DNA from: Bacteroidota bacterium
GTDB lineage: Bacteria; Bacteroidota; Ignavibacteria; UBA10030; UBA8401
Assembly: GCA_030679145.1 (NCBI GenBank)
Contig: JAUXTU010000052.1
Coordinates: 1-64,000, forward strand
Direction: 5' to 3'
Length of the DNA stretch: 64,000 bases
Shown here: positions 13,799 through 19,955 of the stretch, in pieces
How the letters are laid out: each line of letters opens with the position of its first letter
How positions within the stretch are numbered: the first letter of the stretch is position 1
The notes under the pieces: model-generated
Told to the model about the DNA's origin: nothing
Database searches by the model: none
What the model saw: the letters and a program-made list of their open reading frames with translations, nothing else
Made by a program: the position numbers and the translations under genes

Positions 13799-16387
13799 TT
13801 GAACAAATTGCTCTTTCGATCATCAATTTATCTGTTAGTTTCAGTCCTTGTCGCAACCACTCTATTTTCCCAGCAGTTGTTTCTCGAAAATGGCACGCCG
13901 TCGCATCCAAATGTATTATCCTATAATTCGTCAGCACGTTCTATAATAGATCTTTCAGGTGAATGGAATTATTCGCTCGATAATGGTATATCGTGGAAAC
14001 AAGTAAAAATTCCAGCAGCTGCTAATTATGAAGGAAAGATAGTTTACCGGAAAAAATTTTCCGTTGATGAACTTTCCTTACAGAATAATGCATTTACTAT
14101 TGTCTGTTACGGAATCAACTACCAGGCCGAAGTCTTTATCAATGAAACGTTTGTGGGACGACATGAGGGGGGATATACGTCATTTGAGCTTTCTGTTCCG
14201 GATAACATTATTCAGATCGGTTCGGAAAATGTCATTCGTGTTGTTGTCGATAATTTGTTGAACCATAGATCAACATTTCCATTGCGGCCTCAAGTAAGCG
14301 GCTGGAAAAATTACAATGGAATTGTCCGAGATATCTTTATCGTTGCTGCGCCAAAATTACGTATAGAAAAAGTCGGTGTGGTTGTTGAAGCGATCGAACC
14401 GAAATCCACTAAACTAATCGTAACGACAACAGTATCTGCAAAAGATCTGCAAGCATTTGCACAGTTATCCAACAAAACATTTCAACTCTCTGTAGAAACT
14501 GTTGAAGCAGCGAATGGAATTGTTGTTGGAAAACCAACGGTTGTTTCTGTTGTTCCGCAGCCAAATAGTTCGGCGATAGCGCAAATCTCCATTTCAATTT
14601 CCAGCGCAAAATTATGGTCACCGGATTCGCCGGAACTCTATTCGATAAAAGTTTCTCTTCTTGCAGTTGAAGGAAAAAAAGATTCTTTGTTGGATGCGGT
14701 CAGTGTAACCACCGGAATTCGTACGTTCACTAAAGATAAGAATAATCTTCTGTTCAATGGCGCACCCATAAATTTACGAGGCGTTGTATGGATAGAGGAT
14801 TCGGAATTTCACGGAAGTGCGTTGACATACGAAGAGATGGAACGTGATGTTGCTTTGATTAAAAATCTTGGCGCAAACACCGTCCGTGTCGGATTCCATC
14901 CGCCGCATCCTTTCTTTATCCAGCTGTGCGATCGATACGGTCTATTGGTGCTTGAAGAAATTCCGAATTTTGAAATTCCCGCAAAAATTCTCGATGATGA
15001 AAATTACCGCTCACTCGTCAATAATTACCTGAAAGATATGATCGAACGTGATCGGCACAATCCATCAGTAATTGCATGGGGATTAGGAGAGGGATCAGGT
15101 TTTACTGGAGATACCGAGAAGAATATTGTTTCGCAGTTACATCATACTGCAAAATCCATCGATGATCGATTGACCTATTTTATAACGCGGGGCGCTGAAG
15201 ATGATGATGTATCATCTGCAGATATCTGTGCGATCAGTTTCTCCAATGTTGACATCAAGAAATTCCGTTTACAAATTGCTGCATTCAAAGAATCAAATCC
15301 AAAGAAGCCGCTCATTGTTTCCGGTTACGGTAAAGCGATAGAAGATGGGAATCGGAACGGATACAGCGATCCTAATTCTCAGGAATCGCAAGCGCGATAT
15401 ATTCAGCAGCGATATGCTGTCATTAAAGACATGAATCTTGCCGGTTCGATGATCTTTGCGTTTAATGATTTTAAAAGTGATCGCCCGATCATGCATATCA
15501 AACCTACAACTCCTTTGGTTCATACTGTGGGAATTGTAGAATTAGACCGCGAAAAGAAATCGGCATATGATGTTGTTCATTCCATTTATCACGATCAAAA
15601 GATTTCTGCTCTGCCAATCGGAAATTATGTCCCGGCATCTCCGTATGTCTATGTTGTCATCGGGCTTTCATTGTTGATCATTGCAGCTTGGTTGGTTAAT
15701 GGAAATCGCAGGTTTCGCGAAAGTACAAGGCGAGCAATTTTCAATTCATATAATTTTTTTGCGGATATCCGGGACCAATTCACACTTCCGCTTTTTCATA
15801 CAACCGTAACTGCATTCATTATTGCGATTACATTTTCTGTGATATTTTCCAGTATTTTGCATCATTTTAAAACCAGTGTTGCTTTGGATTACATATTATC
15901 GTATCTCCTCTCGGATGATTTCAAAAAAATTGTGATCGAAATGTCATGGAATCCGATGATCGGTGTAGGATATTTTTCAACCATTATTATAGGATGGTTC
16001 TTAGGTTTAACAGTTCTGGTCAAAATTTTAGCGTTGATGGCGCGAGTAAAAATTCGACTGTTTCATTCATATTCAATTGTGGTCTGGACCGCACTTCCCT
16101 GGCTCTTCTTTATTCCGGTCGGAATGATCTTATACCGAGTACTAGAAAGTGAAGTGTATGTCCCCTGGATATTAGGACTGGTTGTTTTAATGTCCGTATG
16201 GGTGTATTTCCGGACATTAAAAGGTATTTCTGTTATTTATCATATCTATACGCCAAAAATGTACATGATCGGTGTGACAGTAGTACTCGTCATCAGCGGA
16301 GGCTTTTACGCCTATTTAGATTATATGTATTCGCTTTCGTTATATGCAGAATATTTCGCAACGCACATTCTTCCCTTTGTCAATTAA
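13799..16387 (+). CDS. Glycoside hydrolase family 2-like protein with C-terminal multi-pass membrane domain; probable pseudo-glycosidase
   Basis: GH2 sugar-binding, Ig and TIM-barrel features (LSGEWNYSLD, LRGVVWIEDSEFHGS, MIERDRHNPSVIAWGLGEGSG); several TM segments in the last ~240 aa; TTG start. Confidence 0.85.
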   Translation: MNKLLFRSSIYLLVSVLVATTLFSQQLFLENGTPSHPNVLSYNSSARSIIDLSGEWNYSLDNGISWKQVKIPAAANYEGKIVYRKKFSVDELSLQNNAFTIVCYGINYQAEVFINETFVGRHEGGYTSFELSVPDNIIQIGSENVIRVVVDNLLNHRSTFPLRPQVSGWKNYNGIVRDIFIVAAPKLRIEKVGVVVEAIEPKSTKLIVTTTVSAKDLQAFAQLSNKTFQLSVETVEAANGIVVGKPTVVSVVPQPNSSAIAQISISISSAKLWSPDSPELYSIKVSLLAVEGKKDSLLDAVSVTTGIRTFTKDKNNLLFNGAPINLRGVVWIEDSEFHGSALTYEEMERDVALIKNLGANTVRVGFHPPHPFFIQLCDRYGLLVLEEIPNFEIPAKILDDENYRSLVNNYLKDMIERDRHNPSVIAWGLGEGSGFTGDTEKNIVSQLHHTAKSIDDRLTYFITRGAEDDDVSSADICAISFSNVDIKKFRLQIAAFKESNPKKPLIVSGYGKAIEDGNRNGYSDPNSQESQARYIQQRYAVIKDMNLAGSMIFAFNDFKSDRPIMHIKPTTPLVHTVGIVELDREKKSAYDVVHSIYHDQKISALPIGNYVPASPYVYVVIGLSLLIIAAWLVNGNRRFRESTRRAIFNSYNFFADIRDQFTLPLFHTTVTAFIIAITFSVIFSSILHHFKTSVALDYILSYLLSDDFKKIVIEMSWNPMIGVGYFSTIIIGWFLGLTVLVKILALMARVKIRLFHSYSIVVWTALPWLFFIPVGMILYRVLESEVYVPWILGLVVLMSVWVYFRTLKGISVIYHIYTPKMYMIGVTVVLVISGGFYAYLDYMYSLSLYAEYFATHILPFVN

Positions 16388-16403: not shown

Positions 16404-19400
16404 ATGTATCTTTCTAAATTAGAAATAGTTGGTTTTAAATCGTTTGCAAATAAAGTGAATCTTTCCTTTGATGCTGGTCTTACAGCAATTGTCGGTCCGA
16501 ATGGCTGCGGGAAGACAAATGTTGTTGATGCTATCCGCTGGGCGTTAGGCGAACAAAAACCGAGTCGCTTGCGAAGTGATAAGATGGAAGATGTTATTTT
16601 CAACGGAACGAAAAACCGCAAACCGCTGGGGATGGCGGATGTTTCATTGACAATTGAGAACACAAAAGGAATTCTTCCTTCAGAATATAAAGAAGTTGTC
16701 ATCACTCGCCGTGTGTATCGTTCCGGTGAGTCGGAATATTATCTGAACAAAACTCTTTGCCGATTAAAAGATATCAAAGATCTTTTTATGGATACCGGAA
16801 TGGGCTCGGATGCGTATTCCGTTATCGAATTGAAGATGGTCGAGACGATCTTGAGTGACAAAGCAGATGAACGCCGCCGATTATTTGAAGAAGCTGCCGG
16901 AGTGACAAAATATAAGGTTCGCAGAAAAGAGACGTTCACAAAGCTTGATCACGTGCAGCAAGATCTGATTCGCGTGCAGGATATTGTGAAAGAAGTGCAG
17001 AAAGCAGTCAACTCTCTTGAACGACAAGCGCACAAAGCGGAACAGTTCAATATCATTTCGCAGGACTTGCGGACAAAAGAAATTATCCTTCTCGAACGCG
17101 AATATTCCGATATCATCCTTTCAATTGATCCGTTAAGGGAAAAACTGACTTCCGCTGTTGATGATAAGAAAAAGATCAGTGACGAACTATCTTCCGAAGA
17201 GACACTGCTGGATGATCTGCGGGAAGAACTGACCTCATTAGAAGAACGGTTGAATGAAGTACAATTAGAACTGAACGAGCATCAGCAAAAAATAAATCTT
17301 TCGCAGCAGGCACGTGTAAAAGCGAACGAACGAACCAATTCGCTGACAGAATCAATTGACCATTTTACGAAAGAAAAAGAAGAACTTTCTCACCAACTTC
17401 CCGAATTGGAGGCGCGTGCTGGGGAATTGGCCGTTTCAATCGATCAAACTCATGCAAATGTCCATTCTTCTACCGAACAATACAATGAGAAAAAAGAAGA
17501 ACTTGACAAATTTACCATAGAACTTGAAAAGAAAAAAACAGAAGTAAAATCGAAACAGGACGAAGTGATCGCCCTGCTTCATGAGATTTCGTCCAAACGG
17601 AATGAATACGAACGAACAAAAGCGCGGTTAGAGAATATCAATGGGCGATTGGATTATTCCGGAGAAGAGAATGCGATCTATACAGCGGAGATTTCAAAAA
17701 ATTCCGCTACGGTAGCCGAACTGACAAAGCAGGATAAAGATTTTCGGAAACAATTTGCCGAAGCAGAGATTCGAGCGTTGGATAAAGAATCAAAAAGAAC
17801 AGGTCTTCTCAAGGAAGTGGAGACTCTTCGCAATACTGAATTTGAAATCCGTGCGCTCCTTGAACGCCGTAAATCCCGATTGGATTTTCTTCAAGGTCTT
17901 ATTGAAAGTCATGAAGGTTTTTCTGAAGGTGCCAAATTTCTTATAACGAATGATGAATGGAAGAACACGCTGCAAACGACCGTTGCGGATGCATTTTCTA
18001 CCGATGCAAAATACCGTATTGCGATCGAAGCGGCACTTGGTGATGTGGCAAATTATATGGTCGTTCAAACGATCGACGATGCCCACCGCGGTGTTGAATT
18101 GTTGAAGACAAGCAATAAAGGCCGGGCAACGTTTGTTTGTCTTGAATCGATCCCATCCTTACCGGATGATAAGTTAGACATTATTGAAGGCGGAGTTATT
18201 TCGTGGGCAAGCGACAGTGTGCAGTGTGATCCAAAATATTCATCTCTTCGAGACTTTCTATTTGCCGGGACAATGATCGTTGAAGATGTTCAAACTGCCA
18301 AAGCGTTGGTGCGAAAATATTTCTCTTTGAAATGCGTTACGTTGGATGGTGAACTCGTCACCGGTTCAGGTATTCTTCGCGGCGGCAGTATTCGTGCAGA
18401 AGATGGTGGATTTATCGGTAAAAAAAATCAGATAGAAGAGCTTCATAAAGAGATTGAAACATTTTTGTTGCAAACCGATTCAAATCGGAAAGAGATTGCT
18501 GGAAAAGAAAAACAGATCGCCGCAATCGATGTAAAATCACTGTTCGATATTGCGAAGAAGATCGAACAACAGATGTCTTCAGTTGAAATGCGCATCGCTC
18601 AGATTGAATATGAAAAGAAGCGGATGGCAGAGAATGTTGAGAGGAATGACGCTGAAAACAGACGCTTGCGTGAAGAAGCAAATGCTCATAATGCAGAACT
18701 GAAAAATCTTCAGCCGACGATTGAGGGATTAGAAAACAAAAAATCATCGGCTGAACAACAATCCGGAGCTACTGCAAGTGAATTGGAAACAATGGAAGTG
18801 ATGTGGAATGAATTTTCCAAGGTAGCAACCAATGCACAACTTGAAATGATGCGATTGGTGAATGAAGAGAAAAATTTTGCCCGTGAATTGGAGTACACTA
18901 ACGCAACGATCGCGAATCTGAAGAATACATTTGCACAGCGAGACACTGATATTGAAAATGCACGTCGTGAGATCGAACGATTAGAGGAAGAACTTCTTTT
19001 TAATGCACATGTTCTTGAGACGCTTGATCAGGAATTAAAAGAAATTATTGAACGAAAGCGCGTGGCACAATCTGACTTTAATTCCAAGCGGACTCAATCG
19101 CACGATATTGAATTAAAATTGAAGGATGCGCGACGGTTACACGACAGTTCAATGTCCCGTTCACATGAATTGGAAATGAAAATTTCCGAACTGACAATGA
19201 AAGCACAGAATATTGTTGACCGCGGGAAAGAAGAGTTCGAATATACTGTTGAGTTGAAGGAATTTACGGCGGAAAATAACTTCGATATTGAATCTGCACG
19301 AGAAGAAATCCGGTATATGAAAGATAAGATCCGCTCACTTGGCGCTGTGAACTTTGCAGCATTTGATGAATATAAAACGGAAAAAGAACGATTGGAATTC

Positions 19401-19955
19401 ATCACTGTTCAGCGCGATGACCTGATCGAAGCGGAAAAGACATTGATGCAGACGATCGAAGAGATCAATAACACTGCTCAGCGAGAATTCATCACAACCT
19501 TTGATAAAGTTCGAGAATATTTCATTTCAACATTCAAAGGATTGTTTGATGAGGGAGATGAATGTGACCTTCAATTGGAAGATGGTGTTGATCCATTAGA
19601 AGCGCGGATTGAAATTACTGCTAAGCCTCGCGGTAAACGTCCGACTTCGATTGATCTTCTTTCCGGCGGTGAGAAGACATTGACGGCGATCGCATTGCTG
19701 TTCGCAATTTATCTTGTGAAACCGTCGCCCTTCTGTATTTTGGATGAAGTTGATGCGCCGCTTGATGATTCGAATATTGACCGGTTCTCTCGTATCATCA
19801 GAAAATTTAGCGATAATACGCAGTTTATTATTGTTACGCACAATAAACGGACGATGGAAGCAGCCAATGCAATGTACGGTGTGACGATGGAAGAACAGGG
19901 TGTTTCAAAATTAGTTTCGGTCCGTTTCAATGAGAGCAAAGTTGCTACAAATTAA
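16404..19955 (+). CDS. smc: Chromosome segregation protein SMC
   Basis: MYLSKLEIVGFKSFANKV...GPNGCGKTNV; hinge; LLSGGEKTLTAIALLFAIYLVKPSPFCILDEVDAPLDD. Confidence 0.98.
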   Translation: MYLSKLEIVGFKSFANKVNLSFDAGLTAIVGPNGCGKTNVVDAIRWALGEQKPSRLRSDKMEDVIFNGTKNRKPLGMADVSLTIENTKGILPSEYKEVVITRRVYRSGESEYYLNKTLCRLKDIKDLFMDTGMGSDAYSVIELKMVETILSDKADERRRLFEEAAGVTKYKVRRKETFTKLDHVQQDLIRVQDIVKEVQKAVNSLERQAHKAEQFNIISQDLRTKEIILLEREYSDIILSIDPLREKLTSAVDDKKKISDELSSEETLLDDLREELTSLEERLNEVQLELNEHQQKINLSQQARVKANERTNSLTESIDHFTKEKEELSHQLPELEARAGELAVSIDQTHANVHSSTEQYNEKKEELDKFTIELEKKKTEVKSKQDEVIALLHEISSKRNEYERTKARLENINGRLDYSGEENAIYTAEISKNSATVAELTKQDKDFRKQFAEAEIRALDKESKRTGLLKEVETLRNTEFEIRALLERRKSRLDFLQGLIESHEGFSEGAKFLITNDEWKNTLQTTVADAFSTDAKYRIAIEAALGDVANYMVVQTIDDAHRGVELLKTSNKGRATFVCLESIPSLPDDKLDIIEGGVISWASDSVQCDPKYSSLRDFLFAGTMIVEDVQTAKALVRKYFSLKCVTLDGELVTGSGILRGGSIRAEDGGFIGKKNQIEELHKEIETFLLQTDSNRKEIAGKEKQIAAIDVKSLFDIAKKIEQQMSSVEMRIAQIEYEKKRMAENVERNDAENRRLREEANAHNAELKNLQPTIEGLENKKSSAEQQSGATASELETMEVMWNEFSKVATNAQLEMMRLVNEEKNFARELEYTNATIANLKNTFAQRDTDIENARREIERLEEELLFNAHVLETLDQELKEIIERKRVAQSDFNSKRTQSHDIELKLKDARRLHDSSMSRSHELEMKISELTMKAQNIVDRGKEEFEYTVELKEFTAENNFDIESAREEIRYMKDKIRSLGAVNFAAFDEYKTEKERLEFITVQRDDLIEAEKTLMQTIEEINNTAQREFITTFDKVREYFISTFKGLFDEGDECDLQLEDGVDPLEARIEITAKPRGKRPTSIDLLSGGEKTLTAIALLFAIYLVKPSPFCILDEVDAPLDDSNIDRFSRIIRKFSDNTQFIIVTHNKRTMEAANAMYGVTMEEQGVSKLVSVRFNESKVATN

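What the first reader, a model, noticed from the sequence alone, without database searches (positions are those of the whole stretch)
13799..16387. GH2 protein with both catalytic glutamates apparently replaced by glycine
The GH2 acid/base motif (e.g. W-S-L-G-N-E-S-G in LacZ-type enzymes) appears as IAWGLGEGSGFTG, placing Gly at the Glu position. The nucleophile segment (typically P-I-I-x-x-E-Y-G) appears as KKPLIVSGYGKAI, again Gly for Glu. The rest of the GH2 scaffold is intact and the frame is open over 862 aa, suggesting a selected pseudo-enzyme (carbohydrate sensor/scaffold) rather than decay.
Basis: partly seen in the sequence, partly recalled or inferred. Interest (0 to 1): 0.7.

Follow-up and report, generated by a model that had tools for sequence, protein, structure and literature searches.

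The report
Membrane-anchored dead GH2 sugar-cutting enzyme
A protein built like a sugar-cutting enzyme has lost its whole cutting site and gained a membrane domain, yet nearly every genome in this bacterial class keeps it, usually directly in front of the chromosome-organising gene smc, so it has probably been turned into a receptor or scaffold.

Summary
The ORF at 13799-16387 (862 aa) is a GH2 scaffold with Gly at both the acid/base (G432) and nucleophile (G509) positions. Three further -1-subsite residues are also gone: His to Phe366, Asn to Glu431 and Tyr to Ser482. In 24 ordinary GH2 proteins from the same genome and its relatives, His, Asn and both Glu are all present.

The protein is one copy per genome and covers nearly the whole class: 177 of 197 genomes, plus four families of other classes in the phylum. 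Barrel dN/dS is about 0.02-0.15. The catalytic columns are mostly among the less conserved in the protein. A positively charged, probably cytosolic segment (636-664) and a loop at the pocket mouth are among the most conserved. Gly/Gly itself is not a family hallmark. One family (f20, 6 of 6 genomes) keeps all five catalytic residues and is nested inside, so the site was probably lost repeatedly from an active ancestor.

smc lies within 1.5 kb downstream on the same strand in 81 of 96 testable loci (median gap 9 nt in the first set), including all 9 outgroup loci. I read it as a periplasmic pseudo-glycosidase receptor or scaffold. Its ligand, and any real tie to SMC, are untested.

The parts
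13799..16387 (+). gene of the membrane-anchored pseudo-GH2 protein, 862 aa
   Evidence: open frame with TTG start; full-length orthologues of 71-73% identity aligned from residue 1
13799..13873 (+). N-terminal signal peptide / export helix (residues 1-25)
   Evidence: hydrophobic helix 4-22, helix 2-22 in the model
13940..14353 (+). GH2 N-terminal jelly-roll domain (residues 48-185)
   Evidence: Pfam PF02837 E 5e-12
14411..14722 (+). GH2 immunoglobulin-like domain (residues 205-308)
   Evidence: Pfam PF00703 E 6e-8
14738..15592 (+). GH2 TIM barrel without catalytic residues (residues 314-598)
   Evidence: Pfam PF02836 E 8e-29; Foldseek to GH2 beta-glucuronidases, target TM 0.75-0.84
14894..14896 (+). 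F366 at the position of the conserved -1-subsite His
   Evidence: H in 24 of 24 ordinary GH2
15089..15094 (+). E431-G432 at the position of the Asn-Glu (acid/base) motif
   Evidence: N and E in 24 of 24 ordinary GH2; phmmer alignment
15242..15244 (+). S482 at the position of the -1-subsite Tyr
15323..15325 (+). G509 at the nucleophile position
   Evidence: E in 24 of 24 ordinary GH2; phmmer alignment
15329..15394 (+). family-specific conserved loop after barrel strand 7 (residues 511-532, N518, G521, Y522, S527, A532)
   Evidence: 85-100% conserved in 112 family members, at most 30% in ordinary GH2; low entropy
15602..16384 (+). C-terminal polytopic membrane domain, Yip1-like (residues 602-862)
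   Evidence: 26 of 50 members match Pfam Yip1, the window copy at E 9.7e-4; model pLDDT 92.5; hydrophobic helices
15698..15790 (+). positively charged, probably cytosolic juxtamembrane segment (residues 634-664), the most conserved stretch tested
   Evidence: mean entropy 1.40 bits for 636-664 against 2.2-2.8 for the GH2 domains
16404..19955 (+). smc, start codon 16 nt after the stop of the pseudo-GH2 gene
   Evidence: the same order in 81 of 96 testable relatives

Best explanation
The protein is a conserved, exported, inner-membrane-anchored pseudo-glycosidase. Shown computationally: a GH2 scaffold with the whole -1-subsite catalytic set lost, a Yip1-like membrane domain fused behind it, near-universal single-copy vertical retention under purifying selection, and a conserved gene pair with smc. 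Inferred: the GH2 part faces the periplasm and binds a glycan or a partner protein without cutting it; the five or six membrane helices pass this to the cytosol through the highly conserved positively charged segment 634-664. It therefore works as a receptor or scaffold, like a bacterial counterpart of the klotho kind of pseudo-glycosidase. An ancestral version was an active glycosidase, and f20 probably still is.
For: Both Glu plus His, Asn and Tyr lost against 24 of 24 controls. Single long copy in 177 of 197 class genomes and in other classes, clearly separated from ordinary GH2 (about 387 bits and above, mostly over 540, full length, against at most 280 bits over the GH2 part only). Barrel dN/dS 0.016-0.145. 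Model mean pLDDT 90.6 and GH2 fold matches E 5e-47. Catalytic columns at the 9th-51st percentile of conservation while pocket-mouth residues (H370, N518, G521, Y522, S527) are at the 90th-100th and segment 636-664 is the most conserved stretch tested. f20 keeps 5 of 5 residues in 6 of 6 genomes, with the same architecture and the same smc neighbour. One published survey calls the GH2 nucleophile Glu invariant across subfamilies (PMC12243196).
Against: No ligand, partner or phenotype is known. Topology rests on hydrophobicity and charge alone. The barrel could serve only as a folded spacer. E431 beside the acid/base position could in principle act as an acid, although nothing replaces the nucleophile. 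Some lineages keep one of the two Glu.
Confidence: 0.75

Rival explanations
1. The smc neighbourhood is only positional: the pseudo-GH2 protein does an envelope job of its own and is merely co-transcribed with smc.
For: At least six families (f11, f18, f19, f21, f25, f26) and most f8 loci keep the protein away from smc; gene order around housekeeping genes can persist by vertical descent (in the order, the HAD-like gene and other downstream genes also stay together).
Against: smc is the only neighbour common to the order, the rest of the class and the outgroup classes at high frequency; the next best occurs in 18 of 48 class loci and none of the 9 outgroup loci. Start and stop overlap or lie within 50 nt in 51 of 65. 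In f15, which lost the GH2 part, a Yip1-only gene still precedes smc.
Confidence: 0.5
2. It is still a glycosidase, with migrated or substrate-assisted catalytic residues.
For: Acid/base replacement with retained activity is reported in subfamily GH2_21 (PMC12243196); E431 lies next to the acid/base position in the window copy and in 12 others.
Against: No family-wide new acidic residue appears at the pocket: the conserved list holds only residues shared with ordinary GH2 or non-acidic ones. Nucleophile, His, Asn and Tyr are all replaced and their columns vary freely.
Confidence: 0.08
3. The gene is decaying, or the substitutions are sequencing errors.
For: Two very divergent copies in 1.7 Mb genomes of the same family (24-25% identity) and a frame-broken copy in one small genome (G083) show that decay does happen in places.
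Against: Open frames and full length in nearly all genomes, low dN/dS, and the same losses in independently assembled genomes.
Confidence: 0.02
4. The barrel binds a protein rather than a glycan (klotho-like co-receptor or structural scaffold).
For: Near-complete loss of sugar-contacting -1-subsite residues while the pocket-mouth loop 511-532 is strongly conserved.
Against: R363, which assists the nucleophile in active GH2, and other pocket residues stay conserved (90 of 98), which would also fit glycan binding.
Confidence: 0.4

Closest known systems
Glycoside hydrolase family 2 (group I beta-glucuronidases / beta-galactosidases, e.g. 3cmg, 5z1a, 6ncy)
   Same: Three-domain GH2 scaffold, predicted fold TM 0.75-0.84 to solved structures, shared structural residues and the conserved Arg of strand 2
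   Different: Nucleophile, acid/base, Asn, His and Tyr all absent in the window copy; C-terminal membrane domain
Klotho (GH1 pseudo-glycosidase co-receptor) and chitinase-like lectins such as YKL-39 (GH18)
   Same: Glycosidase fold turned into a non-hydrolytic binding protein; klotho is also membrane-anchored (PMC7828330, PMC8302672)
   Different: Other GH families, animal proteins; here a polytopic membrane domain, a bacterial class-wide vertical gene, and a gene pair with smc
Bacterial Yip1 domain proteins (PF04893)
   Same: C-terminal domain matches the Yip1 model in 26 of 50 members
   Different: Fused to a GH2 scaffold; the window copy scores below the curated cut-off; no solved structure resembles the predicted fold

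Membership tests
GH2 glycoside hydrolase | jelly-roll + Ig-like + (beta/alpha)8 barrel scaffold | tested here: met
GH2 glycoside hydrolase | nucleophile Glu after strand 7 | tested here: not met
   G509; E in 24 of 24 controls
GH2 glycoside hydrolase | acid/base Glu preceded by Asn after strand 4 | tested here: not met
   E431-G432; N-E in 24 of 24 controls
GH2 glycoside hydrolase | -1-subsite His (loop 2) and Tyr (loop 6) | tested here: not met
   F366 and S482
GH2 glycoside hydrolase | conserved Arg in strand 2 | tested here: met
   R363, 24 of 24 controls and 90 of 98 family members
GH2 glycoside hydrolase | hydrolysis of glycosides | not testable with these tools
   needs purified protein
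Yip1 domain (PF04893) | match to the curated model above cut-off | tested here: inconclusive
   window 19.5 bits against cut-off 28.6; 26 of 50 homologues match at E 0.01 or better; the f15 homologue is above cut-off
pseudo-glycosidase (pseudoenzyme) | catalytic residues lost while the scaffold is kept under selection | tested here: met
pseudo-glycosidase (pseudoenzyme) | binding or regulatory function in place of catalysis | not testable with these tools
   no ligand or phenotype data

The most novel reading that the evidence does not exclude
The protein is a transmembrane partner of the SMC condensin: the periplasmic pseudo-glycosidase reads the state of the envelope (a peptidoglycan or surface glycan) and the conserved cytosolic segment of the Yip1-like domain recruits or regulates SMC, tying chromosome organisation to the cell envelope in this part of the Bacteroidota.
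Probability: 0.2. Interest if true: 0.9.

Novelty: new variant of a known kind. Interest (0 to 1): 0.62.

Why it matters
Pseudo-glycosidases are known mostly from animals, and a published GH2 survey describes the nucleophile Glu as invariant across the subfamilies it defined (PMC12243196). Here is a GH2-derived pseudoenzyme family that covers nearly a whole bacterial class, has its own membrane domain and is found beside smc. The f20 lineage with an intact site is a natural control: comparing it with the dead copies could reveal the ancestral ligand and what was kept when catalysis was lost. It also warns against annotating these genes as beta-galactosidases.

Tried and rejected
I first took residue 431 (Glu) as the acid/base position; the ungapped alignment shows it is the Asn position and 432 is the acid/base, corrected from then on. 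A structure search with the membrane domain alone found nothing, and a profile comparison with the genome's own Yip1 protein was weak, probability 18%. A promoter/terminator scan gave counts near chance and no terminator between the gene and smc. Literature searches for Yip1 with Ignavibacteria (0 papers), pseudo-glycosidases (3 papers, none bacterial by title and abstract) and smc gene neighbourhoods found no description of this family; only CC-licensed PMC papers are held. The phmmer adjacency script measured ORF starts rather than smc starts and was replaced. The dN/dS program failed for a few saturated or divergent pairs.

Full report
Observation. The ORF at 13799-16387 (+) encodes 862 aa without a stop. 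Pfam recognises the three GH2 domains up to residue 598. The alignment to the beta-glucuronidase 6ncy places G432 on the acid/base Glu, E431 on the preceding Asn and G509 on the nucleophile Glu. As a control I took 24 ordinary GH2 proteins from the same genome and its relatives. All 24 have His, Asn, Glu and Glu at the four columns where the window protein has Phe366, Glu431, Gly432 and Gly509. The -1-subsite Tyr is also lost (Ser482): 0 of 5 signature residues remain, against 4 or 5 of 5 in every control.

What was missed. Residues from about 602 to 862 form a polytopic membrane domain. The window copy matches the Pfam Yip1 model only weakly (E 9.7e-4, below the cut-off), but 26 of 50 homologues match it, and a homologue consisting of this domain alone passes the cut-off. 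AlphaFold models the whole protein with mean pLDDT 90.6. Foldseek matches the GH2 part to solved beta-glucuronidases and beta-galactosidases with target TM-scores of 0.75-0.84. The membrane domain alone (pLDDT 92.5) resembles no solved structure.

Distribution. In the 60 nearest genomes, 59 have a match and nearly all carry one long orthologue; in the class, 177 of 197 have a match at E 1e-60 or better. With a family profile, members give about 387 bits or more, mostly over 540 and over the full length, while other GH2 proteins reach at most 280 bits over the GH2 part only. Outside the class, families f29, f32, f47 and f59 have it, and the many other families listed have only GH2-part matches or none. 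Named records of the nearest relatives are uncultured Ignavibacteriae/Bacteroidota bacteria.

Catalytic residues through the family. Of 98 aligned copies, 63 lack both Glu, 18 have only the acid/base Glu, 11 only the nucleophile Glu and 1 has both, the rest being gapped at one of the positions. That one belongs to family f20, and all six f20 genomes keep the full signature H-N-E-Y-E. In the GH2 tree the family is monophyletic against the 24 controls, though with weak support at its base (0.37; 0.91 in an earlier run), and f20 lies inside, next to f9 and the window's order (support 0.98). Parsimony counts at least 8 changes for the nucleophile and 13 for the acid/base, with an active root. Together this suggests an active ancestor that lost catalysis repeatedly, rather than one fixed Gly/Gly state. 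Deep branches are poorly supported, so exact counts are loose.

Selection. Close pairs give dN/dS of 0.016-0.145 in the barrel. In 112 copies the catalytic columns are at the 9th to 51st percentile of conservation. R363, H370, N518, G521, Y522, S527 and D557 at or near the pocket mouth are at the 90th to 100th, and the juxtamembrane segment 636-664 is the most conserved stretch tested (1.40 bits, against 2.2-2.8 for the GH2 domains). N518, G521, Y522, S527, A532 and P394 are family-specific compared with ordinary GH2. A signal-like helix, one entering helix at 615-633 and a positively charged loop behind it suggest a periplasmic GH2 part and a cytosolic segment 634-660 (inference from hydrophobicity and charge).

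Neighbourhood. In the window smc starts 16 nt after the stop codon. Among 76 testable relatives smc follows on the same strand within 1.5 kb in 65; the gap is at most 50 nt in 51, with a median of 9 nt and seven overlaps. A further 20 loci add 16. All 9 loci from other classes have it. Clustering of same-strand neighbours shows smc as the only one frequent in the order, the rest of the class and the outgroups alike. In f15, where the GH2 part is gone, the Yip1-only gene still sits in front of smc. Several families keep the protein away from smc, so the link is strong but not absolute.

Mechanism. Most likely a membrane-anchored pseudo-glycosidase that binds a glycan or protein in the periplasm and signals or tethers through the membrane domain. 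The non-hydrolytic, selected status is well supported; the receptor or scaffold role is inference; a functional tie to SMC is a suggestion from gene order only.

Comparison with what is known. A published division of GH2 into subfamilies reports the nucleophile Glu as invariant, with substitutions described at the acid/base, Asn, His and aromatic positions (PMC12243196). That paper also filtered out proteins with transmembrane domains in its secretion analysis. Known pseudo-glycosidases such as klotho and YKL-39 belong to other GH families (PMC7828330). I found no paper on the present family within the library held.

Noticed in passing
L114:5929-6705 (+): In family f15 a 258-aa Yip1-only protein, related to the membrane domain, sits 134 nt before smc; the GH2 part appears to be gone.
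   Followed up: partly
L119, L161-L165: Six f20 genomes carry the same GH2-membrane fusion before smc with all five catalytic residues intact, the apparent active form.
   Followed up: yes
L066, L067: Two 1.7 Mb genomes of the window's own family have extremely diverged copies (24-25% identity) still directly before smc.
   Followed up: no
L140:5330-8115 (+): In one f19 genome (2.2 Mb) the gene is split over three overlapping frames, probably a frameshifted copy.
   Followed up: no
L125, L128, L110-L113, L132, L133, L136, L137: Members of families f14, f24, f27 and of outgroup families f32 and f47 keep the nucleophile Glu but have lost the acid/base, unlike f2/f3/f5 members that keep the acid/base and have Arg or Lys at the nucleophile.
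   Followed up: partly
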